A stretch of DNA of 11,426 bases. Source: Veillonellaceae bacterium (lineage in GTDB: Bacteria > Bacillota_C > Negativicutes > UBA1444). Below are positions 911-10,188 of the stretch, one piece after another. The position numbers and the translations under genes were made by a program. The DNA lies in contig JAAZNU010000262.1 of NCBI GenBank assembly GCA_012798135.1, positions 1 through 11,426 on the forward strand, given 5' to 3'. Below the pieces are notes generated by a model. That model saw only the letters and a program-made list of their open reading frames with translations. It was not told where the DNA came from and made no database searches. Each line of letters begins with the position of its first letter. The stretch's first letter is position 1.

Positions 911-930
911 GGCGTCCTCCCGTCGTCAGT

Positions 931-1014
931 GGCACGAGCGTCCCGCTCGTGTGCCGCTGCCGTTCATCCTGCTCATCCTGTCCATCCTGCGAGTCTGCCG
1001 TCAGCCGTTGCCGT
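931..1014 (+). repeat. Intergenic cassette 1: GGCAC hairpin plus 9-bp array
   Basis: A copy of the recurring intergenic element. It holds a hairpin (CACGAGCG at 933-940 pairing with CGCTCGTG at 944-951, loop TCC) and three 9-bp units ending in CATCCTG (963-971, 972-980, 981-989). After these comes CGAGTCTGCCGTC and a GCCGTTGCCGT tail that runs into the stop codon of the gene at 1015. Read with the genes (minus strand), the order is stop, GACGGC-type linker, 9-mer array, hairpin, ribosome-binding site. Confidence 0.85.
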
Positions 1015-1293
1015 TCACGCCGGCGCCAGCCGTCCCGGTCCGCCTGGCGGCCGCTCACATGCTGCGTCGGTGTTGAGCCGCCGGATGACCTCCGCGGCGA
1101 TCTCGCGCAGACGCCGGCAGCGGGCCCGGAATGACGCTGCGACGACCGGCCCGGCTGCGCCATCCAGCACCAGGTCCACCTGCTCCCCGATCATCACCGC
1201 AGGAAACATCAGGTCCTCCGCCATCGCCCGCAGGTACGCCCGCAGATGCTGATACTCCCGCGGGCCCTCCAGCACTACCGTTGCCCCGGCCAT
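1015..1293 (-). CDS. Hypothetical 92-residue protein
   Basis: I do not recognise this protein. Residues 1-75 look like a compact mixed fold: a short hydrophobic strand (ATVVLEG), helices (REYQHLRAYLRAMAEDLMF, then FRARCRRLREIAAEVIRRL), and a Pro/Gly-rich tail (PPGGPGRLAPA). The start at 1291-1293 is backed by a GGAGAGGGG stretch on the minus strand just upstream. The N-terminal two thirds of the ORF overlaps the last 80 or so codons of the frame of the neighbouring membrane protein (1055-1423). This ORF has the more protein-like composition in the shared region, so I take it as the real one there. No membrane segment. Confidence 0.6.
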   Translation of the reverse strand: MAGATVVLEGPREYQHLRAYLRAMAEDLMFPAVMIGEQVDLVLDGAAGPVVAASFRARCRRLREIAAEVIRRLNTDAACERPPGGPGRLAPA

Positions 1294-1423
1294 CGTTACC
1301 CCTCTCCAGTCTCTCTCGTCGTGCCTCTCGGATCAGCCACCGGCCGACCGCCCAGGCCAGGCCGATGGCGATGATGTGCACCATGTTCAGCGTCGGCAGC
1401 ATGGTCGGCATGTCAGGATCCAT
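1055..1423 (-). CDS. Small one-TM membrane protein, reading frame doubtful at the C-terminus
   Basis: The first 42 residues look real: a hydrophobic segment around residues 9-27 (MVHIIAIGLAWAVG) followed by a basic helix (RWLIREARRERLERG), as in small phage holin or spanin-like proteins. The start at 1421-1423 lies four bases after the stop of the upstream 35-residue gene and has a GGGGAG ribosome-binding site. After residue 42 the composition turns to Gly/Ala/Ser/Pro, and the frame simply shadows the 92-residue gene beginning at 1293. A TAA in the -1 frame sits at 1296-1298, two bases before that ATG, which is where one would expect this gene to end. A one-base error, a real frameshift or a true long overlap would each explain this. 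The 122-residue length should not be trusted. Confidence 0.45.
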   Translation of the reverse strand: MDPDMPTMLPTLNMVHIIAIGLAWAVGRWLIREARRERLERGNDGRGNGSAGGPAGVSASAGVPAGDGGGPDVSCGDDRGAGGPGAGWRSRAGRRSVIPGPLPASARDRRGGHPAAQHRRSM

Positions 1424-1426
1424 GGC

Positions 1427-1534
1427 CTACTCCCCGAGCTGTTGCGAGATCTGCGAGCTGCGCATGCAGGCTGCGATGACCATCCCCGAGACCGCCGCCC
1501 AGATTGCCACGACCACCGCGATCACCAGGAGCAT
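1427..1534 (-). CDS. 35-residue hydrophobic peptide, possible holin or lysis accessory
   Basis: A very short gene. The minus-strand ATG at 1532-1534 is preceded by a strong ribosome-binding site (AGGAGGTG) with seven-base spacing, and the TAG lies at 1427-1429. The product begins MLLVIAVVVAIWAAVSG and continues through a second hydrophobic stretch to the polar end SSQISQQLGE, giving one transmembrane helix (roughly residues 1-23) and a short polar tail. It sits directly after the GH25 lysozyme gene and directly before another one-TM protein, the place where phages keep holins, antiholins or spanins. Size and topology fit but do not prove such a role. The ribosome-binding site makes it likely to be translated. 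Confidence 0.62.
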   Translation of the reverse strand: MLLVIAVVVAIWAAVSGMVIAACMRSSQISQQLGE

Positions 1535-1546
1535 CTGCGCCACCTC

Positions 1547-2179
1547 CTACCGAATAACCAGTTGCGCCAGCTCCGCCGCCGAGCCGTTGAACATGTCCAG
1601 GTCCGTCGTCGCCTTGCCGTTGTTGATGCCGGTGATGCTGCCCTTGTCGGTGTATTGCCAGAAGCTCCAGTGGCCCCAAGGCGCGCAGGTCGGGTCGTCA
1701 AACGGAGCGTTGCGCGTATAGTGCGCAACCCAGAGCTTGTGATCAGGCACCAGCGTCGGCCGCAGGTGCTCCTCGGCGAAGCTTGGCGACACATACACGA
1801 AGGGCCGCAACGAGACCACACGCCGCACCTCGTCCGAGAACTCCCGCACCAGCGCCGTCATCTGGTCCCGATCGAGCTTGCCCGCCTCCTCGACGTCAAC
1901 CGCCGGCGGCAGCATCCCCGCGAGGCCCTCGCCGTAGCCAACCACCCACAGGAAGTGCGCTGCCTGGTCCTCGCCGCTGCCGGCGACGGGCTTCAGGTAG
2001 TGGTACGCGCCGACCAGGAGCTGGCAGCCCTGCGCTCGGGCCTTGTTCCGCGCATAGGCCGGGTCCCTCCATGCCGTCCCCTCCGTGGCCTTCAGGTACG
2101 CGAATCCGAACCCCTGCCGCGCCACGAGCGACCAGTTGATCTCGCCGTCTCCGTGGTACACATCCACGCCCTTGATCAT
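1547..2179 (-). CDS. GH25-family lysozyme (phage muramidase)
   Basis: A 210-residue glycoside hydrolase family 25 domain with nothing added, so a single-domain N-acetylmuramidase that cuts the peptidoglycan glycan chain. Visible family features are the N-terminal GVDVYHGDGEINW (D6 lies on the active-site strand), FAYLKATEGT near residue 27, GAYHYLKP near 57, the catalytic D-x-E in PPAVDVEE (D95, E97), LWVAHY near 149, and the closing FWQYTD plus DLDMFNG. There is no signal peptide or wall-binding domain, so export would depend on a holin. The start at 2177-2179 has a GGGAGG site. Two tiny membrane proteins follow immediately, forming a possible lysis cassette separate from the one at 7512-9702. 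It could instead be a virion-associated lysozyme. Confidence 0.9.
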   Translation of the reverse strand: MIKGVDVYHGDGEINWSLVARQGFGFAYLKATEGTAWRDPAYARNKARAQGCQLLVGAYHYLKPVAGSGEDQAAHFLWVVGYGEGLAGMLPPAVDVEEAGKLDRDQMTALVREFSDEVRRVVSLRPFVYVSPSFAEEHLRPTLVPDHKLWVAHYTRNAPFDDPTCAPWGHWSFWQYTDKGSITGINNGKATTDLDMFNGSAAELAQLVIR

Positions 2180-2194
2180 GCCCTGCCTCCCGCC

Positions 2195-2242
2195 GTCATC
2201 CTGTCCATCCTGTTCATCCTGTGAGACTCGCCGTTGCCGTCC
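2195..2242 (+). repeat. Intergenic cassette 2: 9-bp array
   Basis: Three 9-bp units ending in CATCCTG (2195-2203, 2204-2212, 2213-2221), then TGAGACTCGCCGTTGCCGTC, ending at the stop codon of the minus-strand ORF at 2243. It fills the gap between that stop and the ribosome-binding site of the lysozyme gene. No GGCAC hairpin is present in this copy. Confidence 0.85.
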
Positions 2243-2482
2243 TCACACACACACGCGGGCCGGCACGTCCCCGGGGGGTTGGGACAATGCCGGCCCGCCC
2301 TGTGTCACCCGGCCCACCAGCCGGTCGTGCATCCCGCTCCCGCGGGAAACAGATTGCCGTCCCACTACCTCCCCGTCGCCATCATCCTGTCCATCCTGTG
2401 AGATAGCCGTCGCCCTGCCGTGCGCCGTCGCCCCCACCAACGCCTCCACCACCATCCGCTGCCACTCACCGCTCGCGTGCAT
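2243..2482 (-). CDS. Doubtful small ORF containing an internal 9-bp array
   Basis: An open frame of 79 codons starting at an ATG (2480-2482) that overlaps a TGA in the neighbouring frame as TGATG. The first 27 residues (MHASGEWQRMVVEALVGATA...) look like a helix of a real protein. The middle encodes SQDGQDDGDG, which is just the translated intergenic cassette (2381-2403). After the cassette come a possible ribosome-binding site (GGGGAGG) and two later starts, GTG and the ATG at MHDRLVGRVTQ, so the region may hold two tiny genes whose separating stop codon has been lost. The distal part encodes a Pro/Gly-rich peptide ending DVPARVCV and lies over a strong hairpin (2256-2297). No function can be given. 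Confidence 0.3.
   Translation of the reverse strand: MHASGEWQRMVVEALVGATAHGRATAISQDGQDDGDGEVVGRQSVSRGSGMHDRLVGRVTQGGPALSQPPGDVPARVCV
2256..2297. other. Strong two-part stem-loop
   Basis: CGGGCCGGCA (2256-2265) pairs with TGCCGGCCCG (2288-2297). Inside it GTCCC (2267-2271) pairs with GGGAC (2281-2285) around a nine-base loop. No T-run follows on the minus strand, so it is not a classic intrinsic terminator. It may act as a pause, a processing site or a Rho-linked end just before the stop at 2243. Confidence 0.6.
2381..2412 (+). repeat. Intergenic cassette 3, two 9-bp units, inside an open frame
   Basis: Two units (2381-2389 and 2390-2398) followed by TGAGATAGCCGTCGCC. The layout matches the other cassettes, with a GGGGAGG ribosome-binding-like site on the 3' side when read with the genes, but no stop codon adjoins it, so the frame reads straight through. 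Confidence 0.75.
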
Positions 2483-2680
2483 CACCGCGTCACCCTCTGC
2501 CGCAGGGATCGCGCCAGGCTCACATGCAGTCGCGCCAGGCCCTCCAGCGCGGTGATCAGCACTGCGATCTCCCAGGGCTCCCACAGCCGTTCCTCCCGTT
2601 CGAAGGGTCTGCCGGCTCACGCCGCAGGCTTTGCGCACGGCCTGCAGCTCAGGCCCCTGGATCCCCCAGGGGCGGATCAT
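2482..2680 (-). pseudogene. Small gene with apparent +1 frameshift after the Cro-like gene
   Basis: The ATG at 2678-2680 overlaps the stop of the Cro-like gene as ATGA, a good start by context. The first 25 codons (MIRPWGIQGPELQAVRKACG..., with an HTH-like RKACGVSRQT) are protein-like. In the next frame, after skipping one base at 2605, a clean sequence follows: FEREERLWEPWEIAVLIT, then ALEGLARLHVSLARSLRQ, ending with a TGA at 2482-2484 that overlaps the next ATG. Joined, this gives a 65-residue protein of sensible composition. The unshifted frame becomes Gly/Ala-rich instead. Alternatives are a sequencing error, a programmed +1 shift at ACC-C-TTC, or a separate 34-residue gene starting at a CTG behind the internal GGGAGG. 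Confidence 0.4.
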
Positions 2681-2964
2681 GATTCGCTCACACCTGCCGG
2701 CTCAGGCTCTGGCTGTGCGTCATCCGGCTCCGGCTCAGGCTCGGTGCCCTTGCCCACCACTACGTCCTGGTACCGTTGCTCGGACTCAGTGTGCAGCTCG
2801 TCGATGGCCGTCAACAGCCGCGTGAACCAGTCAACCGTGAGCGGTCTCTCAGACGTCTCCAGCAGCGAGATGTATGCGGTCGAGCAGCCCAGGCGCGCGG
2901 CGACCTCGTCCAGCCGCAGCCGCGCCGCCTGCCTCAGTTGTCGCACGTACCGTCCCGGTTCCAT
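2677..2964 (-). CDS. Xre-family regulator, Cro-like position
   Basis: A 95-residue DNA-binding protein. Residues 5-55 form a Cro/CI-type helix-turn-helix, with LDEVAARLG (18-26) as the positioning helix and STAYISLLETS (28-38) as the recognition helix. The tail is very acidic and Pro/Glu-repetitive (TEPEPEPDDAQPEPEPAG), perhaps for protease turnover or contact with another protein. It is transcribed leftward, away from the CI-like repressor, from a near-consensus promoter at 3002-3030, and its leader has no clear ribosome-binding site. Position opposite the repressor suggests the lytic-side regulator (Cro role). That is inferred from layout, and an immunity-region activator is also possible. 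Confidence 0.8.
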   Translation of the reverse strand: MEPGRYVRQLRQAARLRLDEVAARLGCSTAYISLLETSERPLTVDWFTRLLTAIDELHTESEQRYQDVVVGKGTEPEPEPDDAQPEPEPAGVSES

Positions 2965-2967
2965 GTT

Positions 2968-3007
2968 GTTCAGTCCAGTTCAGTAGAGTTAGCTACGGTA
3001 GAGTGTA
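2968..3007. promoter_or_regulatory. Operator candidate: 10-bp phased repeats
   Basis: Four successive 10-base blocks read GTTCAGTCCA, GTTCAGTAGA, GTTAGCTACG and GTAGAGTGTA. GTTCAGT recurs at 2968 and 2978, and GTAGAGT at 2983 and 2998. The blocks cover the -10 element, the predicted start of transcription and most of the leader of the Cro-like gene. Spacing of one helical turn puts the repeats on the same DNA face, as expected of a repressor-binding array for one of the flanking Xre proteins. Confidence 0.55.
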
Positions 3008-3030
3008 GTAAAATGTTGGCGTCCTGTCAA
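3002..3030 (-). promoter_or_regulatory. Sigma70-type promoter for the Cro-like gene
   Basis: On the minus strand a perfect -35 TTGACA (3025-3030) is followed by a 17-base spacer and the -10 hexamer TACACT (3002-3007). Transcription would start near 2995, about 30 bases before the Cro-like ATG. This is the PR equivalent of the switch. Confidence 0.75.
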
Positions 3031-3079
3031 GCACTTTTTCGCCGCCCGTTGGGCCCGCCGCCCCACGCCGGTTGAGTCG

Positions 3080-3094
3080 TGCTATACTTGCCGC
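3080..3094 (+). promoter_or_regulatory. Extended -10 promoter giving a leaderless repressor mRNA
   Basis: TGCTATACT (3080-3088) is an extended -10 element. Transcription six or seven bases downstream would begin at or next to the A of the repressor ATG (3095). No ribosome-binding site lies in front of that ATG and no good -35 is visible. Lambda cI is likewise leaderless when made from PRM. Confidence 0.6.
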
Positions 3095-3586
3095 ATGGCC
3101 ACATTGGGGCGGATCATTGCGGGGGCCCGCATCGAGCGGGGTATGACGCAGGAGGAACTTGCCGACGCGATCGGCGTCAGCAAGAGCGCAGTCTGCCAGT
3201 GGGAAGCGGGTCGGTCCACGCCGCGCATGCACATCCGCGCACGCATCGCCAAGGCCCTGGGGCTCGAGACGATGGTGCTGCTGCCCGAGATCGAGCTCCT
3301 ACCCGAATTGGACCCACCGCGCACCAGGGAACAGGCCATTGCCGATATCAAAGCGCGCCTGGCAGAGCTCGAGCACGACGAGCACGAGGGCCGCGGCGAC
3401 GCGCCCGATCCGTACCCCGGAATTGAGGCGTTGCTCCAGGACCCCACGTTGCGCCAGGCTCTCCAGATCACGGATGCCGAAGCCGAGAGCTTACGGTCCG
3501 TCTCCGTAGGCACGGACCACAGCGTCGAGACGGTGGATCAGGCGATCGCGCTCCTCGCGCTGTTGCGGACACTGCGCCGCCGCTAA
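3095..3586 (+). CDS. CI-like Xre-family repressor
   Basis: A 163-residue regulator. Residues 4-58 carry a clear Cro/CI helix-turn-helix: GMTQEELADAIGV (16-28) then SKSAVCQWEAGRSTP (29-43). A hinge rich in Glu/Asp/His (EHDEHEGRGDAPDP, 93-106) leads to a helical C-terminal part (PGIEALLQDPTLRQALQITDAEAE, VDQAIALLALLRTL) resembling the oligomerisation tails of other short phage repressors. There is no S24 self-cleavage domain, so induction would not follow the LexA/RecA route and may need an antirepressor. The start is the first ATG after an extended -10 (3083-3088) with no ribosome-binding site. It lies opposite the Cro-like gene with 130 bases between. Calling it the lysogenic repressor is inference from fold and position. 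Confidence 0.82.
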   Translation: MATLGRIIAGARIERGMTQEELADAIGVSKSAVCQWEAGRSTPRMHIRARIAKALGLETMVLLPEIELLPELDPPRTREQAIADIKARLAELEHDEHEGRGDAPDPYPGIEALLQDPTLRQALQITDAEAESLRSVSVGTDHSVETVDQAIALLALLRTLRRR

Positions 3587-3700
3587 CTCCCGACGCACCT
3601 GCGCCACCAACTCAAGCGGCACGTCTGCCCCGAAAATAACCACCGTGTCCAGCAGGAGAACTCGAAACGGTCGTGGAACATCACCAGCAGTGACATGCAT
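3491..3700 (-). CDS. Hypothetical 69-residue protein, antisense to the repressor 3' end
   Basis: An unrecognised small protein starting MHVTAGDVPRPFRVLLLDTV, with a hydrophobic strand, a helix (PLELVAQVRRELAAAQ) and a second charged helix (EERDRLIHRLDAVVRAYG). The composition is protein-like. I chose the ATG at 3698-3700 because a GGGGGTG stretch lies about nine bases upstream. A GTG at 3707-3709 is an alternative. The last 96 bases run antisense to the end of the repressor gene, so transcription here would collide with repressor transcription. The overlap is long for a phage, which keeps confidence moderate. No signal peptide or membrane segment. Confidence 0.45.
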   Translation of the reverse strand: MHVTAGDVPRPFRVLLLDTVVIFGADVPLELVAQVRRELAAAQCPQQREERDRLIHRLDAVVRAYGDGP

Positions 3701-3753
3701 GAGCGTCACCCCCGCCAGGCCATTCGCTTCATTCGCGAAACATCCTCCCGGAT

Positions 3754-3764
3754 GGGGGGGGGGG
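3754..3764 (+). repeat. Run of eleven G residues
   Basis: An uninterrupted G11 tract in the spacer between the divergent genes at 3700 (minus) and 3837 (plus), upstream of both. Such tracts slip during replication and can vary promoter spacing. They also cause sequencing errors. Confidence 0.9.
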
Positions 3765-3782
3765 CGACGATTGCCACAGATT

Positions 3783-3791
3783 TGTTACGAT
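3783..3791 (+). promoter_or_regulatory. Possible extended -10 upstream of the membrane-protein pair
   Basis: TGTTACGAT fits an extended -10 (TG-n-TACGAT). The start point would be near 3798, leaving a leader of about 40 bases before the ATG at 3837. No clear -35 is seen, and the match is modest. Confidence 0.3.
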
Positions 3792-3836
3792 ACGTCCCGG
3801 GGCACAGGCGCTCAATCCGTGTGGTGGGTGACCGCA

Positions 3837-4325
3837 ATGATCACGCGCAAGTCGCTGCCATACTGGCTCGCCATGGTCGCCGTCGTCACGCTCGTCGCCG
3901 CCCTGCCGTCATACCTCTCGTACCGCGATGCCAAAACCAATCTGCCCGAAGCCCTGAGTAAACTCCCGCCCGAGCTGGGCGGAACCAACTACGCGCGCCC
4001 GGCCGCTCCGGCAATCCCCAGCGCTCCAACCACGCCGCCAGCAGCACCACCGGCGGCCAACCCCAGCGCCGCCCCACACAGCGTTGGGGACCCACCCGGC
4101 GACATGGCCAGCGACCCTCGGTTTGTCGCATGGCGCCAGGCGTGGGGGCAGCTACAGCGGGGGATGACGGTCGCCCAGGTGGAGTCGCTCATCGGTCCGG
4201 GCCATCGCACGTCATCAGCGGCGGGGCGCGAGAACTACCAGTGGACGCCGCCGGCGGATCAGTGGGGGATCCCATGTCAGTGCTGGTTCGAGAGCGGCCG
4301 CCTGACCGAATGGATCGGCTACTGA
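3837..4325 (+). CDS. Membrane-anchored protein with BamE-like domain, candidate lysogenic conversion factor
   Basis: A 162-residue protein with three parts. Residues 8-28 (PYWLAMVAVVTLVAALP) form an uncleaved signal anchor after a basic N-terminus. Residues 52-85 are a Pro/Ala linker (PAAPAIPSAPTTPPAAPPAA). Residues 97-162 resemble the small BamE/SmpA-OmlA fold, with QLQRGMTVAQVESLIGPG, then YQWTPP and a final strand CWFESGRLTEWIGY. The domain would lie outside the inner membrane. I chose the ATG at 3837 because the anchor begins there and GGTGGGTGA precedes it; the frame upstream is low-complexity and unlikely. It is transcribed with the repressor side of the switch and overlaps the next gene by one base. 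Superinfection exclusion or host-envelope change in lysogens is inference only. Confidence 0.68.
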   Translation: MITRKSLPYWLAMVAVVTLVAALPSYLSYRDAKTNLPEALSKLPPELGGTNYARPAAPAIPSAPTTPPAAPPAANPSAAPHSVGDPPGDMASDPRFVAWRQAWGQLQRGMTVAQVESLIGPGHRTSSAAGRENYQWTPPADQWGIPCQCWFESGRLTEWIGY

Positions 4326-4471
4326 TGCGCTACCCCGACGGCGAGCGTATCAGCCCCCAGGAGGGGATGGCCCGCCGCACGCACCTCGCCTGGCTCGCAG
4401 ATCTCCTCAGCGCACTGTTCCGGCACATCCGCTCAGCCCTGCACATCGGTTCACGCAAAGCGGCCCGGTGA
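4325..4471 (+). CDS. 48-residue protein coupled to the BamE-like gene
   Basis: The ATG at 4325-4327 overlaps the upstream TGA by one base (TGATG), a typical coupled junction. The product begins MRYPDGERISPQEGMARR and continues with an amphipathic helix (LAWLADLLSALFRHIRSAL) ending in basic residues. The helix is too polar for a confident transmembrane call but could lie on a membrane surface. The stop codon is inside the stem of the terminator at 4459-4488. I do not recognise it; the shared transcript suggests it works with the membrane-anchored protein. Confidence 0.55.
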   Translation: MRYPDGERISPQEGMARRTHLAWLADLLSALFRHIRSALHIGSRKAAR

Positions 4472-4488
4472 TCTCTCACCGGGCCGCT
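4459..4488. terminator. Bidirectional terminator between convergent units
   Basis: AGCGGCCCGGTGA (4459-4471) pairs perfectly with TCACCGGGCCGCT (4476-4488) around a TCTC loop, a 13-bp GC-rich stem. It separates the rightward unit ending at 4471 from the leftward unit ending at 4529. T-runs are weak on both sides. Confidence 0.75.
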
Positions 4489-4528
4489 GCCATTCATGGC
4501 ACGGATGTCCCGACGCGTGCCGGCGAAT

Positions 4529-5047
4529 CTACCCCGTTCGCGCCCCCGCATCCGCCCACGATCTCACGTCTCCCGCCCTGTAGATCCGCCGGTTCCCGAC
4601 CATGCGCGCCACCGGGAGGACGCCCGCGGCGGCCGCGCGGTGCACCGTGGTCCGATCGACGTTGGCGATGCGCGCCGCCTGCCCGCCGGTGACCTCGAGG
4701 TCGTCGGTGAGACTGCTCGTATCACCGATGCAAGCCCGCACGGCCTGCCCCAGCAATGTCTCCCAAAACGCCGGTGGGATGTCGTACACGTGCTCCGTCG
4801 GCGGCGAGAACAACATCTCGCAGATGTCCTGGCATTGCTCATAGACCTCCGCGACGTCGCGGTCGCCCAGGGCGTGGGCGAAGATGTCGCGCAGCATTGC
4901 CGCCAGCGGCGTGTCCCCCCAGTCGGGCCAGACCACCCCGAACACGCCCAGCTCCTCCGCCAACTTCCATGCCGTGCGCGCCAAAGCCTGGTGCACGCGT
5001 TGGATCTCCTGCTCACGATCCTGCTCCGTGCTGTCCGTCAGTCTCAT
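4529..5047 (-). CDS. Excisionase-like HTH protein, candidate recombination directionality factor
   Basis: A 172-residue protein. Residues 117-165 are a MerR/excisionase-type winged helix-turn-helix: VTGGQAARIANVDRTTVHRA followed by GVLPVARMVGNRRIYRAGDV and a closing helix. The N-terminal 100 residues are helical and acidic (REQEIQRVHQALARTAWKLA, then DVAEVYEQCQDICEMLF) and match nothing I know. The start at 5045-5047 is fixed by a GGGAGG site; the open frame upstream is a shadow of the neighbouring gene. It is the second gene of the early unit driven from 5911-5940 and faces away from the integrase. Controlling excision is a reasonable guess. It could equally be an early transcription regulator. 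Confidence 0.68.
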   Translation of the reverse strand: MRLTDSTEQDREQEIQRVHQALARTAWKLAEELGVFGVVWPDWGDTPLAAMLRDIFAHALGDRDVAEVYEQCQDICEMLFSPPTEHVYDIPPAFWETLLGQAVRACIGDTSSLTDDLEVTGGQAARIANVDRTTVHRAAAAGVLPVARMVGNRRIYRAGDVRSWADAGARTG

Positions 5048-5066
5048 GTTTGCCTCCCATATCGAT

Positions 5067-5088
5067 GAGGGGCCCCGCAGGGCCCCTC
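5067..5088. other. Stem-loop between the two early genes
   Basis: GAGGGGCCC (5067-5075) pairs with GGGCCCCTC (5080-5088) around CGCA. It lies between the stop at 5113 and the ribosome-binding site of the next gene. Without a T-run it looks more like an attenuator or processing site than a terminator. Confidence 0.6.
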
Positions 5089-5112
5089 TGACGACGCGCA
5101 GGTGATTTCCAT

Positions 5113-5838
5113 TCAGTCCGCGCTCGTACCCGACACGCCGTGGTTGATGACGACCTTCCAGCAGGTGCCCGCAGGGAGGCTGATGCACCCATGCTGACCG
5201 TGGCGCAGGACGCGCGAACCATCGGGCAGGTTCTCGAGCTGGTGCGACCGGGGCAGGGCGCCCAGGTTGTCGGTGCGCTGCTGGATGAGCCAGACGTCGC
5301 CCTGACGCAAGACCGTCCGGCCCTGGTCCTGGGCGTTGCGCACCGCAGCGGGGGTGATGTACGCCAGCGCCTCCGCAACAGTCGTCATGCGACGCGGCAC
5401 CCGCACCGCCCAGACCTGGCAGTCCTCGACGCCCGCGACGTAGCACGCGCCCGTCCACCAGTCGCCGAACTTGTTGCTGTAGTGATAGCGGTACTCGGCA
5501 CCGTACAGCCAGACGCCGCCGACGCGGTCGCGGATGCGGCCGCCGTCCCAGCCAGTAGGCCGATCCAGCCCGCGCTCGGTGATGGCCTGCTCGGTGCGCT
5601 CGATGAGGGTCTCAGTCACGCGGTCGATGAACCGGACGGGCACCTCCGGCGTGTAGCCCGGGCGGATCCGGTTTTGCCGGTCGACCTCGGCGTCCAGTTC
5701 GGCGAGACGGCCCGTGAGTGTTCCGCCGTGATGCGCGACGAGGGTACGGGCGACCTCGCGGCGGTCCCTGGCGGTCAGAGCGAAACGGCGGATACGAGAC
5801 GCGACGGCTGCGACTGTGTTATGCTGTGTCTGCGACAT
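5113..5838 (-). CDS. Early protein with a C-terminal RQGD/HPEH-like domain, function unknown
   Basis: A 241-residue soluble protein, the first gene behind the strong leftward promoter. The N-terminal half is helical and basic (SRIRRFALTARDRREVART, then VRFIDRVTETLIERTEQAI). The middle is aromatic (GVWLYGAEYRYHYSNKFGDW). The C-terminal 65 residues contain RQGDVWLI (178-185), SHQLEN (198-203), RHGQHG (212-217) and LPAGTCWKVV (221-230). This pattern recalls short proteins in phages and plasmids built around RQGD, a histidine and HPEH-LP-G. That is a remembered resemblance and I know no assigned activity. The start has AGGAGAG about ten bases upstream. Early position and cargo-like domain make an anti-host or DNA-metabolism role possible but unproven. 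Confidence 0.7.
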   Translation of the reverse strand: MSQTQHNTVAAVASRIRRFALTARDRREVARTLVAHHGGTLTGRLAELDAEVDRQNRIRPGYTPEVPVRFIDRVTETLIERTEQAITERGLDRPTGWDGGRIRDRVGGVWLYGAEYRYHYSNKFGDWWTGACYVAGVEDCQVWAVRVPRRMTTVAEALAYITPAAVRNAQDQGRTVLRQGDVWLIQQRTDNLGALPRSHQLENLPDGSRVLRHGQHGCISLPAGTCWKVVINHGVSGTSAD

Positions 5839-5865
5839 GGGAGCTCACTCTCCTGTGTTGTATGC

Positions 5866-5894
5866 GGGGCGTCGCCCTGACCCGACGGCGCCCC
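5866..5894 (-). promoter_or_regulatory. Leader stem-loop in the early transcript
   Basis: GGGGC pairs with GCCCC at the ends (5866-5870, 5890-5894) and GTCG with CGAC inside, with a bulge on one side. It lies between the promoter and the ribosome-binding site of the gene ending at 5838, so it would sit in the 5' leader of the early mRNA. Confidence 0.45.
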
Positions 5895-5910
5895 GCTTGA
5901 CTATGTACCT

Positions 5911-5940
5911 ATTATATATCGTTGCTATCGTTGCTGTCAA
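5911..5940 (-). promoter_or_regulatory. Consensus early promoter with a tandem 9-bp spacer repeat
   Basis: On the minus strand TTGACA (5935-5940) and TATAAT (5911-5916) are both perfect consensus hexamers. The 18-base spacer (5917-5934) is exactly two copies of a 9-mer, TATCGTTGC on the plus strand. The start would be near 5904. The duplicated spacer is a natural operator for a phage repressor. It drives the genes 5838 to 4529. Confidence 0.85.
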
Positions 5941-5996
5941 CCCCCTACAGCAGATTTCTCGCAGGTTTTTCCACGCACCCGCCGAAACTACTGCCC

Positions 5997-7475
5997 ATGA
6001 CCGCATGGATCTACTCCCGCGTCTCCACGCAGCGCCAGGTGCCCGGGCTCTCCCTCGATGCACAGGAGGAGCGCGCCCGAGCCCGCGCAGCCGCCGATGG
6101 TCACCAGGATGCACAGGTCGTCCGGGACGCCGGCGTTAGCGGCCGCTCCATGGACCGCCCGGGAATCTCGCACCTGCTCGACCAGATCCGCCCCGGTGAC
6201 ACACTATATGTGTGGTCGATCTCGCGCCTCGGCCGCAACGTGCGCGAGGTTCTGCGCGTGGTCGAGGATCTCATCATCCCCCAGCAGATCATCTTGGTCA
6301 GTGTGACCGAGCCCATCGATACCAGCAACCCCGTCGGCCGCTGCATGCTCTCGATCCTCGCATCGCTGGCCCAGCTCGAGCGCGAGCAGATCAGCGGCGA
6401 CATGCGCCGCGGGATGGAGGAGCGCGTGGCCAGGGGCCTGCACTGGAGCACGCCGCCCTATGGCTACCGCTGCGAGGACAAGCGGCTCGTGCCGGATCCC
6501 CAGTTCACGGCCGTGGTGCGCGAGTTGTACGTGCGCGCGGCCAACGGCGCCACACGCCGCGAGCTCGCACGCTGGCTCAACGACCAGGGCGTCCCGACGC
6601 GCAGCGGCAGGCCCTGGCACTATGCGTCGGTCGCCCGCATCCTGAGCAATCCCGCCTACATGGGCCGCATCCCGTTCCGCGGCGACGTGCTGCCGGGCAC
6701 GCACGAGCCGTTGGTGCCCGACGATCTCTGGGACCAGGTACAACGCATCGTCGCCGTCCGCTCGCGGATCCCGCCGCCTGCCAGGGTGAGCTCATGGGCG
6801 TCGCTGTACCGCTGCGGTGTGTGCGGCAGCAGTGTCTGCATCAGTTCCGCCGGCGCGCACCCACGCCGCACATACCAGTGCGTGGCCCGCCTGCACGTGG
6901 TGGCCGCCCGGCGCCACGAATCTATCGGGACGCCGGCAGCCAAAGCCGACCACTGGTTGTGGGAGAGCTTCTGCCGGACCATTGCCGGCGAGTCGTTGCG
7001 GGAGTGGGAGAGACTGACAGGGGAGGACGGCCGCGACGCCGCACGCGACGCCGAGCGCCACGAACTCGCGGCCGAACGCGACAAGTTATTGTTGTCACTG
7101 GATCGCAATCACAGGGGATGGGTCAGTGGGTTGGTGCCGGAGGGGTTGTACGCCCAGGTCAACCGCGAACTGATGGAGGCCCTGGGGGCGGCCGAGCGGC
7201 GCCTGGGGGAATTGGCAACGCTCGACGACGCCATGAGCATCTCCCAGACGCTCACGGGCGGCCGGGAGATGCTGGAGTTGCTGGACAGCCGACAGCGCCG
7301 GGACGTGCTGCTGCGTCTGGTGGACCACGTGGGGCTGCGCCATAACGACCTGACGGTGCACTGGGCACTGCCGACGTTGCCGCGCATGCGCATCGAGCTA
7401 CCGCGCTACTGGTCGCCAGCGCGCAACTACGGCACCGCCCGCATCACCTACCTCCCCGCCACACTGCGCGATTAG
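5997..7475 (+). CDS. int: Large serine integrase
   Basis: A 492-residue large serine recombinase that would integrate the phage at an attB site. The N-terminal catalytic domain has YSRVSTQRQ with nucleophile S10, GVSGRSMDRP, and the arginine motif SRLGR (76-80). The Recombinase domain runs from PPYGYRC (153) to NPAYMGR (224). A zinc-ribbon segment follows (CGVC at 273-276, then TYQC ending at 295), but the usual fourth cysteine is absent and a nearby histidine may replace it. A coiled coil lies around 342-406. I chose the ATG at 5997 because the family begins M-x-x-W-I-Y-S-R-V-S; an upstream in-frame ATG falls within the opposing promoter. No clear ribosome-binding site precedes it. It converges with the endolysin gene, 36 bases away. 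Confidence 0.93.
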   Translation: MTAWIYSRVSTQRQVPGLSLDAQEERARARAAADGHQDAQVVRDAGVSGRSMDRPGISHLLDQIRPGDTLYVWSISRLGRNVREVLRVVEDLIIPQQIILVSVTEPIDTSNPVGRCMLSILASLAQLEREQISGDMRRGMEERVARGLHWSTPPYGYRCEDKRLVPDPQFTAVVRELYVRAANGATRRELARWLNDQGVPTRSGRPWHYASVARILSNPAYMGRIPFRGDVLPGTHEPLVPDDLWDQVQRIVAVRSRIPPPARVSSWASLYRCGVCGSSVCISSAGAHPRRTYQCVARLHVVAARRHESIGTPAAKADHWLWESFCRTIAGESLREWERLTGEDGRDAARDAERHELAAERDKLLLSLDRNHRGWVSGLVPEGLYAQVNRELMEALGAAERRLGELATLDDAMSISQTLTGGREMLELLDSRQRRDVLLRLVDHVGLRHNDLTVHWALPTLPRMRIELPRYWSPARNYGTARITYLPATLRD

Positions 7476-7512
7476 GCTACGCCACCTTGGTCGCAGAGCG
7501 CAGTCGCGCAGT
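7463..7512. other. Inverted-repeat junction, weak attP or terminator candidate
   Basis: ACTGCGCGA (7463-7471) is mirrored by TCGCGCAGT (7504-7512), giving a 50-base segment with inverted ends that spans the integrase stop and the endolysin stop. Serine-integrase attP sites are about this size and often adjoin the integrase gene. A long-loop terminator is the alternative. Confidence 0.25.
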
Positions 7513-8144
7513 CATCCCACATAGACCTTCCCCTCATCTCGCAGGTGATCCGTGATGCGCTCCACGCCCATGGCCTCCAGCACCTCCCGCGCGGGCACCC
7601 ATAGCTCATCGCCGCGGATCTCACCCCGGCGCGTCAGCACCTCGCCGGACTCCCGCTGCACGATGACGTAGGCCTCCGCCAGGCGGTAGCAGCCGGTCAC
7701 GCGGTCGGCGACGTCCGCCAGGGGCGTGAGCTTCGTGCCCGGGCTCCGCGGATTGCCCCGGGTCGCGCTGCTCGTGTTCTCGGCGATCTGCCCGTCGCCC
7801 ACGTAGATGGCGATGTGCCCGTAGGTGCCGGAGTTGCGGTTGATGCCCAGGATGTCGCCGGGGCGCATGGTCGCCGGGTCCACCTGGCGGCCGCCGGCGC
7901 GGAGCCGGTCGCACATGTCGGTCGCAGTCCCGGCCGCATACTCCCAGCCGCCATCACTGAGCCCGCAGGCGATCTCATGCACCTGGCGCACGAATCGCGC
8001 GCAGTACCCGCCTCGGTTGAGGTCGAGCCGTTGCGCACTCGCACCGCTGCCCAGGGTGATGTTGCTCTGCCCGTTTTGCCGCGCCCGCGCTGCCTGGGTC
8101 GCGATCTCGATGACCCGCCTCACGTGTGCCGCTGTGTACCTCAT
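7512..8144 (-). CDS. Cysteine-peptidase endolysin (NlpC/P60 or CHAP-like) with stalk-like C-terminal domain
   Basis: A 210-residue predicted cell-wall hydrolase cutting the peptide part of peptidoglycan. The catalytic cysteine is in GGYCARFVRQV (C48), the histidine in TYGHIAIYVGDG (H110), with AENTS (about 121-125) supplying the third polar group. RPGDILGI just before the histidine is typical of NlpC/P60 and CHAP folds, and I cannot choose between them. Residues 160-210 (VIVQRESGEVLTRRGEIRGD, then LWVPAREVLEAMGVERI, then GKVYVG) resemble the copper-amine-oxidase N-terminal-like stalk domain, a likely wall-binding part. The start at 8142-8144 is chosen over the ATG at 8162 because GGGAGG sits six bases ahead. 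There is no signal peptide, so release needs a holin. Confidence 0.83.
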   Translation of the reverse strand: MRYTAAHVRRVIEIATQAARARQNGQSNITLGSGASAQRLDLNRGGYCARFVRQVHEIACGLSDGGWEYAAGTATDMCDRLRAGGRQVDPATMRPGDILGINRNSGTYGHIAIYVGDGQIAENTSSATRGNPRSPGTKLTPLADVADRVTGCYRLAEAYVIVQRESGEVLTRRGEIRGDELWVPAREVLEAMGVERITDHLRDEGKVYVG

Positions 8145-8157
8145 GTCTGCCTCCCGT

Positions 8158-8252
8158 GGCACGGGCGTCTCGCCCGTGTGCCGTCGACCGTCCGTGTGCC
8201 GTCAGCCGTTCATCCTGCCCATCCTGCTCATCCTGTGAGTCTGCCGTCGCCG
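8158..8252 (+). repeat. Intergenic cassette 4: GGCAC hairpin plus 9-bp array
   Basis: A hairpin (CACGGGCG at 8160-8167 with CGCCCGTG at 8171-8178), three 9-bp units ending in CATCCTG (8209-8217, 8218-8226, 8227-8235) and TGAGTCTGCCGTCGCCGTC, which runs into the lipoprotein stop at 8253. It is organised like cassette 1. Confidence 0.85.
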
Positions 8253-8555
8253 TCATCCCGTCCGCAGTCCGCCAGTCTGCAGATCCAGCACCACCCACCG
8301 ACCGCGCACCACCAGCATGCCGCCTGGCTCCGGCCCATCCCAGTTGCCGGTGACAATCTCGCCCACCCGCGCGCTCAGCGTCCGCGCGATCGGCGCCACG
8401 GCGTACGCGCTCACCAGGCACCCGCGCGGCTGCCCGTCAGCGCCGAGCCAGAACACGACGTACCGCAGCGGGCCCGTCGCGGCGGCGGGCCGGTCGTCGT
8501 CACAGCCGGCCAGGGCGGCGAGCGCCAGCAGCGTCACCAGCAACGCGTGCCTCAT
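8253..8555 (-). CDS. Phage-encoded lipoprotein
   Basis: A 100-residue protein with a classic lipoprotein signal: MRH, a hydrophobic core (ALLVTLLALA) and the lipobox LAGC with C18 as the acylated residue. Asp at position +2 (CDDD) would favour retention in the inner membrane by the E. coli Lol rule, if the host sorts that way. The mature part is a small beta-rich domain (LRYVVFWLGADGQPRG, then GGMLVVRGRWVVLDLQ). The start at 8553-8555 is preceded by GGGGAT, and an ATG six codons upstream is possible. It lies between a holin-like gene and the endolysin gene. Candidates are an outer-membrane spanin-like role or superinfection exclusion. Proline-rich Rz1 features are absent. Confidence 0.75.
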   Translation of the reverse strand: MRHALLVTLLALAALAGCDDDRPAAATGPLRYVVFWLGADGQPRGCLVSAYAVAPIARTLSARVGEIVTGNWDGPEPGGMLVVRGRWVVLDLQTGGLRTG

Positions 8556-8579
8556 GTCGATCCCCACATTCATCCATGG

Positions 8580-8618
8580 GCACGGGGTGCCGCGGCAGCA
8601 CGCGGCGGGGCCCCGTGC
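8580..8618. repeat. GCACGGGG hairpin, cassette-related
   Basis: GCACGGGG (8580-8587) pairs with CCCCGTGC (8611-8618). The loop holds a smaller palindrome, TGCCGCGGCA. The arms resemble the GGCAC hairpins of the other cassettes, and it fills the spacer between the holin-like and lipoprotein genes. Confidence 0.55.
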
Positions 8619-8626
8619 TGCCGTTG

Positions 8627-8845
8627 TCACAGCGATCCTCCCGGACGCACACGCCGCCGCACCAGCACGCAGAACCAGACGCCCACACAGAACCCTCCCG
8701 CAGCGCTCACAGCAGCCGCTGTGAGCCGATCCGGGATGCGCGCGCAGCCGACGGCCAGGAGCGTCCCTCCGGCGGCCGCAGCGACGCACACAGCCGGCAG
8801 CAGGAGCCGTCGCCAGACCCAGCGCCAGTCAATCAGTCCGCCCAT
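8627..8845 (-). CDS. Two-TM holin-like protein
   Basis: A 72-residue protein with two transmembrane helices, about residues 14-35 (LLLPAVCVAAAAGGTLLAVG) and 41-62 (LTAAAVSAAGGFCVGVWFCV), a short tryptophan-rich N-terminus and a basic C-terminus (RRRVRPGGSL). Size, topology and charged tail fit a class II holin that would open the inner membrane for the endolysin two genes downstream. The start at 8843-8845 has a GAGGTG site, but this site is partly inside a small hairpin and lies just after a terminator, implying tight control. Sequence alone cannot separate a holin from an antiholin or a membrane accessory. Confidence 0.7.
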   Translation of the reverse strand: MGGLIDWRWVWRRLLLPAVCVAAAAGGTLLAVGCARIPDRLTAAAVSAAGGFCVGVWFCVLVRRRVRPGGSL

Positions 8846-8847
8846 CG

Positions 8848-8860
8848 TGCACCTCGTGCA
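8848..8860 (-). promoter_or_regulatory. Ribosome-binding site hairpin of the holin-like gene
   Basis: TGCAC and GTGCA form a five-base stem around a three-base loop (8848-8860), trapping the GAGGTG ribosome-binding site of the gene starting at 8845. It directly follows the T-run of the terminator. It may delay holin synthesis. Confidence 0.4.
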
Positions 8861-8899
8861 AAAAGCCCCTGGCCGGCGGGTGGGTGCGCCGGCCAGGGG
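8860..8899 (-). terminator. Rho-independent terminator upstream of the holin-like gene
   Basis: CCCCTGGCCGGCG (8866-8878) pairs perfectly with CGCCGGCCAGGGG (8887-8899) around an eight-base loop, and on the minus strand the stem is followed by C then five T residues (8864-8860). It would stop transcription arriving from the tail genes unless antiterminated. Confidence 0.85.
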
Positions 8900-8929
8900 T
8901 TGCGGGAGGCCCGCCTCGCGGCGGACTAC

Positions 8930-9298
8930 TCAGAACGCGATCTCAAACGTCCGGGCGATCCTGGCATACAGGTCGCCATCGAACTCCTCGTCGCGCATCA
9001 CCAGGGCGCCGAGTCTGACCTCCACGCCGGCGACATCGGTCAGCCCGATCCACACCCCGCCGGCAGTCAGCCCGCCGACCTGCAGCAGGTCCACGCCGAA
9101 CTCTCTACCGGCGAGTAATGGGAGGTCGTTGGGCAGCGTCCCAAGCCGCAGACCCAGGCTCACGCTCACCTGCTGCTGGTGCAGGAACGTCGTGCCTGCC
9201 CCGAGCTCGGGCTGCAGATCCCAGGCGATGCCATCTGCCCGCACCATGCTCGCCGTCATTGCCAGCGCCCACAGGACGCAGATCAGTATGTACCTCAT
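8930..9298 (-). CDS. Exported protein, possibly beta-barrel
   Basis: A 122-residue protein with a cleavable signal peptide: MRY, hydrophobic ILICVLWALAMTAS, and a likely cut after A21 (VRA/DG). The mature part alternates hydrophobic and polar residues in several strands (VSVSLGLRLGTLP, GVWIGLTDVAGVEVRLGALV, DLYARIARTFEIAF) and ends in phenylalanine, features of small outer-membrane barrels. At about 100 residues it is short for a complete barrel. The start at 9296-9298 has GAGGAG about nine bases upstream. It lies just before the strong terminator in the lysis/tail block. Surface modification of the host or a role in lysis are guesses; no family is recognised. Confidence 0.65.
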   Translation of the reverse strand: MRYILICVLWALAMTASMVRADGIAWDLQPELGAGTTFLHQQQVSVSLGLRLGTLPNDLPLLAGREFGVDLLQVGGLTAGGVWIGLTDVAGVEVRLGALVMRDEEFDGDLYARIARTFEIAF

Positions 9299-9322
9299 CG
9301 CGCATCACTCCTCGCCGTTTGT

Positions 9323-9357
9323 GGCACACGGGCGTCCCGCCCGTGTGCCGTCGCCGT
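9323..9357 (+). repeat. Intergenic cassette 5: perfect GGCAC hairpin
   Basis: GGCACACGGGCG (9323-9334) pairs perfectly with CGCCCGTGTGCC (9338-9349) around TCC, a 12-bp stem. The tail GTCGCCGT adjoins the stop codon at 9358. This copy lacks the 9-bp array. Confidence 0.85.
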
Positions 9358-9702
9358 TCAGCCGCTCCTCGTCACCGCATGCACAGCCGCCTCGATGTCC
9401 GCCTCGTCAATCTGGATCCCGCGCTCAGCCGCCCACGCTTTCACCTGGGCGAGCTTTTCCTTGCCCGCCTTCCCCGAAGCGTCTTTGAACTTCTGCTCCG
9501 CGGCCGCGACCAGCGTCCGCACCATGAGCGCGTTGCTGGTGCCGATCGTCAGCTCCAGCTCTGCCAGCTTCTTGTCGCGCCAGGCTCGGATTGCCTGTGT
9601 CGCAACCGCACCGACCGCACTGAGCACCAGCAGCAGCACCGCACCCAGCAGGTTGACCACCTGTGACTGCAGTTCCGGCGTCCACACGTCCGTGATGTGC
9701 AT
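9358..9702 (-). CDS. LL-H-type phage holin
   Basis: A 114-residue protein matching the layout of the phage LL-H holin family: a short N-terminus, one transmembrane helix (about residues 14-38, QVVNLLGAVLLLVLSAVGAV), then a long soluble helical part with the typical NALMVRTLVAAAEQKF and GKEKLAQVKAWAAERGIQID, closing with IEAAVHAV. Holins of this family sit in the inner membrane next to endolysin genes. The start at 9700-9702 has GGGAGG with usual spacing. It lies between a coiled-coil membrane protein and an exported protein, some 1.2 kb before the endolysin. Together with the two-TM protein at 8627 it gives this phage at least two holin candidates. Confidence 0.85.
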   Translation of the reverse strand: MHITDVWTPELQSQVVNLLGAVLLLVLSAVGAVATQAIRAWRDKKLAELELTIGTSNALMVRTLVAAAEQKFKDASGKAGKEKLAQVKAWAAERGIQIDEADIEAAVHAVTRSG

Positions 9703-9732
9703 GTCCCTGCCTCCCTCTCACCAACATGATGG

Positions 9733-9789
9733 GCACGGGGTGTCCCGTGCGCCGTTGGTCGTCTGTAGGGCGGGGGTTCATCCCCCGCC
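9733..9789 (+). repeat. Intergenic cassette 6: two hairpins
   Basis: GCACGGG (9733-9739) pairs with CCCGTGC (9744-9750), and GGCGGGGG (9769-9776) pairs with CCCCCGCC (9782-9789) around TTCAT. Both hairpins lie between the stop at 9805 and the LL-H-type holin gene. The second hairpin is a different module from the GGCAC type. Confidence 0.8.
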
Positions 9790-9804
9790 GGCCGTCTACG
9801 CCCA

Positions 9805-10092
9805 TCACTTCATATGCGTCGCCAGCGCGTCAATCAGCGGCCCCAGCAGCGTCCCGAGCAGCACCATCAGACCCACGAGCACGGTGCCGCCAAAGCTCAG
9901 CGTAGCCGTCCTATCGTCCTGTTTCCGCTGCACCTCATCCAACTTCTGATTCACTGTTCGGAGGTCGCCCCGCAGATCCGCCGCCAGGGTCTTCTGCGCC
10001 GTTTCCATGGCATCGAGCCGCTCCTTCATGTTGCGGATGTCCGCCGTGTTGGTCGCGCCGCGGACACAGTCATCGCCTGTCTGGTGGTCCAT
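9805..10092 (-). CDS. Coiled-coil membrane protein, XhlA-like
   Basis: A 95-residue protein. Residues 16-60 form a charged coiled coil (NTADIRNMKERLDAMETAQ, then VNQKLDEVQRKQDD), and residues 66-90 a C-terminal transmembrane helix (SFGGTVLVGLMVLLGTLLGP) with a short tail. This is the layout of XhlA-type phage proteins, which accompany holins. The start at 10090-10092 is preceded by GGGGGGTG; an ATG 16 codons upstream lies in a GC-rich hairpin and is less likely. It directly precedes the LL-H-type holin gene. A role in lysis is inferred from topology and place. Small tail-linked coiled-coil proteins look similar. Confidence 0.65.
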   Translation of the reverse strand: MDHQTGDDCVRGATNTADIRNMKERLDAMETAQKTLAADLRGDLRTVNQKLDEVQRKQDDRTATLSFGGTVLVGLMVLLGTLLGPLIDALATHMK

Positions 10093-10119
10093 TACGCACC
10101 CCCCGGGAGAAATGGCAAC

Positions 10120-10138
10120 GCCCCCGGGGCCCGGGGGC
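10120..10138. terminator. GC-rich palindrome, weak terminator candidate
   Basis: GCCCCCGG (10120-10127) pairs with CCGGGGGC (10131-10138) around GGC. On the minus strand it is followed by GTTGCCATTTC, not a real T-run. It lies after the tail-fibre-like gene, so it could lower transcription into the lysis block. Confidence 0.4.
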
Positions 10139-10143
10139 ATATG

Positions 10144-10188
10144 TTCATCCTGCTCATCCTGTCCATCCTGTGAGACTGCCGTCCGCCA
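10144..10188 (+). repeat. Intergenic cassette 7: 9-bp array
   Basis: Three units ending in CATCCTG (10144-10152, 10153-10161, 10162-10170), then TGAGACTGCCGTCCGCC, which adjoins the TAA of the tail-fibre-like gene at 10189. The unit order (T-, C-, then T-type first bases) is the same as in cassette 1. Confidence 0.85.

What the first reader, a model, noticed from the sequence alone, without database searches (positions are those of the whole stretch)
931..10188. Modular intergenic cassettes placed right after stop codons
At 931-1014, 2195-2242, 8158-8252, 9323-9357, 9733-9789 and 10144-10188, spacers share one plan on the gene strand: stop codon, GACGGC-rich linker, an optional array of two or three 9-bp units (CATCCTG core), an optional GGCAC hairpin, then a ribosome-binding site. 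All copies have the same orientation relative to the genes, and the linker begins within a few bases of the stop. Modules are swapped between copies: array only, hairpin only, or both. This could be host interspersed repeats captured by the phage, recombination joints for gene exchange, or RNA processing/stability signals. The layout is seen; function and origin are inference.
Basis: partly seen in the sequence, partly recalled or inferred. Interest (0 to 1): 0.72.

Follow-up and report, generated by a model that had tools for sequence, protein, structure and literature searches.

The report
REP-like repeats filling phage gene spacers
The gaps between this phage's genes carry small tagged hairpins and short tandem repeats of a type found in bacterial genomes, probably small mobile or copied DNA elements rather than signals tied to stop codons.

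Summary
The repeats are real. Four three-unit CATCCTG arrays and one missed two-unit array lie outside called genes and share a similar flank. Four hairpins carry a GTGG or GTAG tag at the stem base, the hallmark of REP elements. A GACGGC-type linker starts within 10 nt of the stop in 7 of 7 chosen spacers. The window is a whole 11,426-bp contig with phage genes; its host is unknown.

Stop anchoring and orientation are not general. In seven viral contigs picked by the hairpin, 81 arrays lie evenly between stop and start; tags sit on the gene strand in 10 of 21 cases over twelve contigs. Those seven have strict 7-10-nt arrays in 29 of 137 spacers against 1 of 36 in lysin relatives, but one contig, G006, gives 15 of the 29. 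Complete copies are palindromes with two array arms, some with a GTGG hairpin in the loop; Gemmatirosa megaplasmids carry similar ones. The window has one-armed copies.

Best reading: host-type REP-like hairpins and array elements that colonised phage spacers. Mobilisation by a host transposase is inferred; none was found in 15 records.

The parts
965..989 (+). 9-bp array, three CATCCTG units, one arm only
2197..2221 (+). 9-bp array, three units, one arm only
8211..8235 (+). 9-bp array, three units, one arm only
10146..10170 (+). 9-bp array, three units, one arm only
929..951 (+). REP-like hairpin GTGG-CACGAGCG-TCC-CGCTCGTG
   Evidence: stem differs from 8156-8178 by one compensatory A-T/G-C change
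8156..8178 (+). REP-like hairpin GTGG-CACGGGCG-TCT-CGCCCGTG
9321..9349 (+). REP-like hairpin with 12-bp stem and TCC loop; two bases of the GTGG tag lie in the stem
   Evidence: (z -3.1)
9732..9753 (+). variant GGCAC hairpin (GGCACGGGGTGTCCCGTGCGCC), no GTRG tag
9765..9789 (+). GTAG-tagged REP-like hairpin GTAG-GGCGGGGG-TTCAT-CCCCCGCC; a near-identical hairpin, with GCCGTT on one side and GGCCGTCT on the other, is in phage contig L092
10120..10138 (.). GC-rich hairpin next to array 10146-10170, untagged
8594..8622 (.). hairpin in a further spacer with an ACGGC linker near the stop
   Evidence: z -2.4
991..1014 (-). ACGGC-type linker between stop and array
2223..2242 (-). ACGGC-type linker between stop and array (stop of ORF 2243-2680)
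8237..8252 (-). ACGGC-type linker between stop and array
9347..9357 (-). ACGGC-type linker between stop and hairpin
10172..10188 (-). ACGGC-type linker between stop and array

Best explanation
The cassettes are copies of host-type interspersed intergenic repeats that have built up in the spacers of this phage. There are two kinds. The first is GTGG/GTAG-tagged hairpins of the REP superfamily. The second is one-armed members of an ACAGGATG tandem-array family, whose full form elsewhere is a palindrome with two complementary tandem arms. Short ACGGC hexamer linkers join the modules. Spacers carry them because coding DNA tolerates insertion poorly, and in tightly packed late genes that puts them just after stops and before ribosome-binding sites. 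Shown: the tag, loop and stem pattern, dispersal with similar flanks, absence from the held stretches of lysin-relative phages, and the same kinds of repeat in other phages; the array kind is also in bacterial megaplasmids. Inferred: host origin, spread of the hairpins by a host REP-associated tyrosine transposase acting in trans, and array growth by slippage or copying. Any effect on mRNA is taken to be a by-product or a later use.
For: GTRG tag within 4 nt of the stem start in 4 of 9 intergenic palindromes of the window, and 30 hits at 90 palindromes over 12 contigs (180 orientations, one palindrome counted in both; background 0.029 per 8-mer); controls 2 hits at 21. Over 69 held records the two commonest tetramers 5' of 212 8+3+8 palindromes are GTGG (25) and GTAG (8), and 26 of those 33 have a TCY loop. 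Without requiring a stem, 23 of 96 GTGG-N8-TCY-N8 sites pair at all 8 positions, with 10 distinct sequences and none at 6 or 7; controls 0 of 30. A REP survey reports GTRG and GTGG variants, 6-13-bp stems, short loops often TY, and a place near 3' ends of genes (PMC3733652, sections 5 and 15). Array copies share a GACGGCAGWCTCA-like flank. Contigs chosen by the hairpin have strict arrays in 29 of 137 spacers against 1 of 36 (p 0.006) and 1 of 47 (p 0.001). Two-armed arrays: 27 of 128 hairpin-selected spacers (shuffled 0), 8 of 140 Gemmatirosa spacers (shuffled 2), 1 of 74 controls (shuffled 0).
Against: One contig, G006, supplies 15 of the 29 strict-array spacers and 15 of the 27 two-armed ones; without it the strict counts are 14 of 104 against 1 of 36 (p 0.12), 1 of 47 (p 0.04) or both controls together, 2 of 83 (p 0.008), and spacers of one contig are not independent. 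No host genome is known, and scans of the genome collection for this array with its junction found nothing. No Y1 transposase in 13 virus records or 2 Gemmatirosa plasmids. The window arrays lack the second arm. Uniform orientation and the stop-adjacent linker in this window are not explained by random insertion. Two AT-rich contigs have lenient arrays in 3 of 12 and 3 of 8 spacers, so arrays alone do not mark the class. Arms of G006 copies do not covary in register (read by eye).
Confidence: 0.6

Rival explanations
1. Cis-acting RNA elements: after transcription of the late operon the hairpins block 3' decay or pace ribosomes between cistrons, and the CAGGATG arrays bind a protein or present SD-like AGGA sites, so each cassette sets the level of one gene.
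For: Cassettes lie between co-directional late genes. Three of seven spacers fold better than shuffles (z -3.1, -2.5, -2.4). One compensatory stem change separates 929-951 from 8156-8178. In viral contigs G002 and G003 four arrays sit 5-20 nt before starts. REPs within 15 nt of a stop are reported to lower translation (PMC12306157, passages), and two of the four tagged window hairpins lie that close: 15 nt and 8 nt (9323-9349, from coordinates).
Against: Four of seven spacers do not fold better than shuffles. On the gene strand the ATCCTG array reads the other way from the window in 5 of 6 G002/G003 copies; hairpin tag strand is 10 to 11 over twelve contigs. The other two tagged window hairpins lie 63 and 74 nt from the stop. 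The held stretches of lysin relatives lack them.
Confidence: 0.2
2. Phage-encoded repeats that spread within the phage by its own copying, not related to the host.
For: Uniform orientation and similar flanks in the window; six identical same-orientation hairpins in spacers of G006.
Against: The array type is present in bacterial megaplasmids, and GTRG hairpins are a bacterial chromosome feature (PMC3733652).
Confidence: 0.15
3. Recombination joints: repeated spacers give short homology at which phages swap single genes.
For: Repeats are dispersed, similar and lie between genes. The held 20.6 kb of L062 matches only two window proteins at E 1e-4, in the other order: 9358-9702, with cassettes on both sides, and 7512-8144, with a cassette on one side.
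Against: The held stretches of relatives lack the cassettes, so no joint is shared; shared blocks are about 45 bp and diverged. Not really testable with phages this distant.
Confidence: 0.07
4. Intrinsic terminators or chance GC-rich palindromes and microsatellites of a high-GC genome.
For: GC is 68%; one strong terminator-like site exists at 8899-8866.
Against: No cassette hairpin is among the five terminator-like sites; arrays and palindromes exceed shuffles; flanks and tags are shared.
Confidence: 0.03

Closest known systems
REP elements, GTAG superfamily, including the GTGG variant of Opitutus terrae GTAG-20 (PMC3733652; abstract, passages and sections 5 and 15 read, figures not held)
   Same: Tag at one end of a 6-13-bp stem, short loop often TY, intergenic, mostly between co-directional or convergent genes, near 3' ends.
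   Different: Here in phage contigs, alternating with tandem arrays and hexamer linkers; no RAYT seen; host copy number unknown; the GTAG-20 consensus itself could not be compared because it is in a figure.
REPINs and Pseudomonas REPs (PMC3116915, PMC3390384; passages read)
   Same: Small dispersed palindromes in extragenic space.
   Different: In the P. fluorescens group, mobile elements map to regions devoid of REPs (PMC3390384); here phage spacers carry them. Window hairpins are not inverted doublets.
TAACTGA heptamer direct repeats of Beggiatoaceae, Cyanobacteria and Bacteroidetes (PMC4679880; abstract, passages and section 24 read)
   Same: Short tandem direct repeats in intergenic DNA, patchy taxonomic spread, uncertain function.
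   Different: 7-nt unit close to starts, often where an SD would be; here a 9-nt unit with a separate RBS, hairpin partners, and a two-armed full form elsewhere.
Two-armed tandem-array palindromes in held contigs (L092, G006, G009, L032, L035) and Gemmatirosa kalamazoonensis megaplasmids
   Same: 7-10-nt units, intergenic; in G006 a GTGG hairpin inside the loop; in L092 GCCGTT linkers.
   Different: Window arrays have one arm only; most units differ in sequence.

Membership tests
REP (GTAG superfamily) | GTAG or GTRG tag at one end of the stem | tested here: met
   4 of 9 intergenic palindromes in the window; GTGG and GTAG the top two 5' tetramers over 69 records. The other window hairpins are untagged.
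REP (GTAG superfamily) | 6-13-bp stem, short loop, 20-40 bp in all | tested here: met
   8- and 12-bp stems, loops of 3 or 5
REP (GTAG superfamily) | mainly between co-directional or convergent genes, near 3' ends | tested here: met
   Tagged window hairpins lie between co-directional genes, 8-74 nt from the stop (9323-9349 from coordinates); two of four are more than 60 nt away
REP (GTAG superfamily) | high copy number in a host chromosome | not testable with these tools
   No genome held for the window; host unknown
REP (GTAG superfamily) | association with a RAYT (Y1 transposase) | tested here: inconclusive
   0 of 15 records; none among the window proteins scanned with Pfam; host chromosome not available
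REPIN | inverted REP doublet acting as one unit | tested here: not met
   The four tagged hairpins in the window all point the same way
TAACTGA/STRR heptamer arrays | 7-nt unit beside the start codon, overlapping the RBS site | tested here: not met
   9-nt unit; separate RBS; median 50 nt from the start for four arrays
Two-armed tandem-array palindrome | two complementary 7-10-nt arrays in one spacer | tested here: not met
   0 of 13 window spacers; 27 of 128 in hairpin-selected contigs, 15 of them in G006
Intrinsic terminator | GC-rich stem followed by a T-run | tested here: not met
   Five sites found, none at a cassette hairpin
Known Rfam RNA | match to a curated covariance model | tested here: not met
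   None at gathering scores or at E up to 1

The most novel reading that the evidence does not exclude
A class of bacterial intergenic elements that I found unnamed in the papers searched, palindromes with two complementary 7-10-nt tandem arms and sometimes a GTGG-N8-TCY-N8 REP hairpin in the loop, has colonised up to about half of the spacers of some tailed phages. Phages would then carry REP-like elements between hosts, against the picture of mobile elements as REP deserts.
Probability: 0.35. Interest if true: 0.75.

Novelty: new variant of a known kind. Interest (0 to 1): 0.55.

Why it matters
In the P. [quoted passage not shown] Phage genomes with tagged hairpins and array palindromes in many spacers would give a simple route for their horizontal spread. 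They might link a phage to hosts with the same repeat vocabulary, and they make the mobility of these elements testable by comparing closely related phages. They may also help explain odd spacers and spurious short ORFs in such contigs.

Tried and rejected
Rejected: stop-codon targeting as a general rule (32 of 81 arrays within 30 nt of a stop, 34 within 30 nt of a start, mean relative position 0.49). Rejected: a fixed gene-strand orientation. Rejected: terminators and Rfam families. A CsrA-like reading of ACAGGATG was considered from memory and dropped because the recalled ANGGA core does not fit; no call tested it.

Led nowhere: BLAST of single cassettes against plasmids and phages, apart from the Gemmatirosa arrays; host inference from lysozyme, lysin and integrase homologues, which named no consistent host group; the first paper search, too broad. 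Sequence-string paper searches for the array, the hairpin core and related arrays found no paper or three unrelated ones; the library lacks most subscription journals.

Rows dropped: of 11 hairpin stretches (10 contigs) I used 7 contigs. L027, L036 and L030 were left out of the spacer counts because the hairpin lies in coding sequence by eye; L031 and L033 are one contig. Of 26 array stretches, L011, L014 and L015 were used as array phages, L013 was dropped because it repeats L011, 9 were used as 'coding-array' controls, judged by eye (L025's array turned out to lie in a called spacer; L021 and L026 are near-duplicates). L001 and L006 were but not; the others were not used. Of the ten GTAG-hairpin stretches, L088 and L095 were not run for spacers, and seven (L086, L087, L089-L091, L093, L094) had 2 of 33 spacers with lenient arrays, so the GTAG string alone does not mark the class. 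L092 came from that search and was examined because its spacers looked alike. Phage genes were found by PHROGs in L092, L032, G001-G003, G005-G007 and G009; in G004 0 of 2 proteins matched, and L035 was not scanned.

Odds changed after checking: confidence in the best explanation lowered from 0.65 to 0.60 because of the weight of G006.
Full report
What the window is. The window is a complete 11,426-bp contig with no genome held. It encodes a GH25 endolysin, a holin-like protein, a CHAP/NlpC-like lysin (below the Pfam cut-off), a deoxynucleoside monophosphate kinase, HTH regulators and a serine integrase, so it is probably part of a temperate phage or prophage. Late genes lie on the minus strand. 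The host is unknown.

The observation. The CATCCTG arrays are real and far beyond chance: 9 two-unit matches against 0 in 200 shuffles. There are five, not four. Their copies share a GACGGCAGWCTCA-like flank on the stop side, with one to three differences, so they look like dispersed copies of one element and not independent microsatellites. Hairpins are in more spacers than listed: 8 of 13 spacers of 40 nt or more hold a perfect 8-bp palindrome, 0.0 expected. The ACGGC linker lies within 10 nt of the stop in 7 of 7 chosen spacers (P 0.0002 against random placement in the spacer), but a test over all 18 listed genes and all 5-mers gives only P 0.018. All cassettes point the same way, yet every flanking gene is on one strand.

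Four hairpins are REP-like. On the plus strand three read GTGG at or in the base of the stem and one reads GTAG. A 2013 survey of REPs describes a GTAG tag, degenerate to GTRG in some families and to GTGG in most Opitutus terrae GTAG-20 elements, with stems of mostly 6-9 bp and short loops often TY (PMC3733652, section 5). Over 69 held records of 1.02 Mb, GTGG (25) and GTAG (8) are the two commonest tetramers before the 212 8+3+8 palindromes, and 26 of those 33 have a TCC or TCT loop. When I searched twelve contigs for GTGG-N8-TCY-N8 without asking for a stem, 23 of 96 sites paired at all eight positions, in ten distinct sequences, with none at six or seven; 30 control sites gave none. Of seven other tags tried, GTAG gave one in the twelve contigs, and GAGG gave one in the controls. 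Nine of the 23 carry the stem that I had used to select contigs; fourteen do not, six of them identical copies in G006 (counted). A constant tag and loop with fully compensated stems is the expected mark of an element recognised as a hairpin.

The arrays belong to a larger class. In Gemmatirosa kalamazoonensis megaplasmids the ACAGGAT array occurs as an inverted pair around a loop. In phage contig G006 whole elements have two complementary arms of 9-nt units (from TTAACCGCAGAG or a close variant to GCGGTTAA) with a GTGG hairpin in the loop, at 28530, 30939 and 33727, and other families use 7-, 8- and 10-nt units. Phage contig L092, with terminase, portal and capsid genes, has a near-identical GTAG hairpin with GCCGTT on one side (8 nt further off in the window) and GGCCGTCT on the other, and CTCTGTG arrays at 9- and 8-nt steps preceded by GCCGTT. 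Two complementary arrays in one spacer occur in 27 of 128 hairpin-selected spacers, 15 of them in G006; 4 of 9 in L092; 4 of 68 in G001-G003; 8 of 140 in Gemmatirosa, where shuffles gave 2; 1 of 74 controls; and 0 of 13 in the window. The window therefore carries one-armed copies.

Association of the two modules. Seven contigs chosen because they hold the hairpin outside coding DNA have strict 7-10-nt arrays in 29 of 137 spacers, 1.08 per kb between genes against 0.125 per kb in genes. Held stretches of four lysin relatives of the window phage have 1 of 36 and nine other viral contigs 1 of 47 (p 0.006 and 0.001). G006 alone gives 15 of the 29; without it the comparison is 14 of 104, p 0.12 and 0.04, and 0.008 against both controls together. 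The window itself has 2 of 14 by the strict rule and 4 of 13 by the lenient one.

What does not hold. Over those seven contigs 81 lenient arrays between co-directional genes sit evenly from stop to start. In G002 and G003, four of six ATCCTG arrays lie 5-20 nt before start codons, and five of six read the other way from the window. Hairpin tags are on the gene strand in 10 of 21 cases. Within one genome orientation can be uniform (window 3 of 3, G006 6 of 6, same call), which I cannot explain. The held stretches of lysin relatives lack the window's repeats.

Mechanism. I judge most likely that these are host-type REP-like and array elements that entered and spread in phage spacers, the hairpins by a host RAYT in trans, and the arrays by copying and slippage. 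The first part rests on the tests above; the RAYT step is inference, and no Y1 transposase was found in 15 records. RNA effects are possible: three of seven spacers fold better than shuffles, four do not, and two of the four tagged hairpins lie within 15 nt of a stop, the range in which REPs are reported to act on translation (PMC12306157, passages).

Literature. In P. fluorescens group strains mobile elements map to regions devoid of REPs (PMC3390384, passages). TAACTGA heptamer arrays (PMC4679880; abstract, passages, section 24) are the nearest published short intergenic arrays that I found, but differ in unit and place. No paper in the held library contains the array or hairpin strings searched; the strings matched three unrelated papers.

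Noticed in passing
L077-L079 (G006, IMGVR_UViG_3300020005_000015): 20 of 32 spacers of this phage hold 6-10-nt tandem arrays by the lenient rule, of several families (CRCARAG, CGCAGAT, AATCCA, GGCTGAA), 15 of them two-armed by the rule; a good reference case for the class.
   Followed up: partly
L092 (IMGVR_UViG_3300035701_000714) 821-11302: Head-gene module with repeats in most spacers: AGCTGCA inverted arrays, CTCTGTG arrays, GCGACCATCCTGGTCGC palindromes, GTAG hairpin.
   Followed up: partly
G002 (IMGVR_UViG_3300044796_000433) 28905-28934, 30614-30649, 32853-32886: ATCCTG arrays 5-20 nt upstream of start codons, resembling the placement of TAACTGA repeats.
   Followed up: no
L069 about 18973-19330 (G002 38473-38830): Dense run of ACGGC dyads, many at 6-nt steps; not examined for coding or repeat nature.
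   Followed up: no
window 2180-2676: Long spacer with two arrays and an ORF (2243-2680) that the gene finder does not call; coding status unclear.
   Followed up: partly
window 5911-5940, minus strand: Perfect sigma-70 promoter consensus (12 of 12, 18-nt spacer) upstream of gene 5113-5838.
   Followed up: no
window 8866-8899, minus strand: Strong intrinsic-terminator-like hairpin with a T-run between late genes 8930-9298 and 8627-8845.
   Followed up: no
L035 (IMGVR_UViG_3300033233_000403): 5.9-kb contig with ten intergenic palindromes, eight with a GTRG tag, some stacked close together; phage genes not checked.
   Followed up: partly
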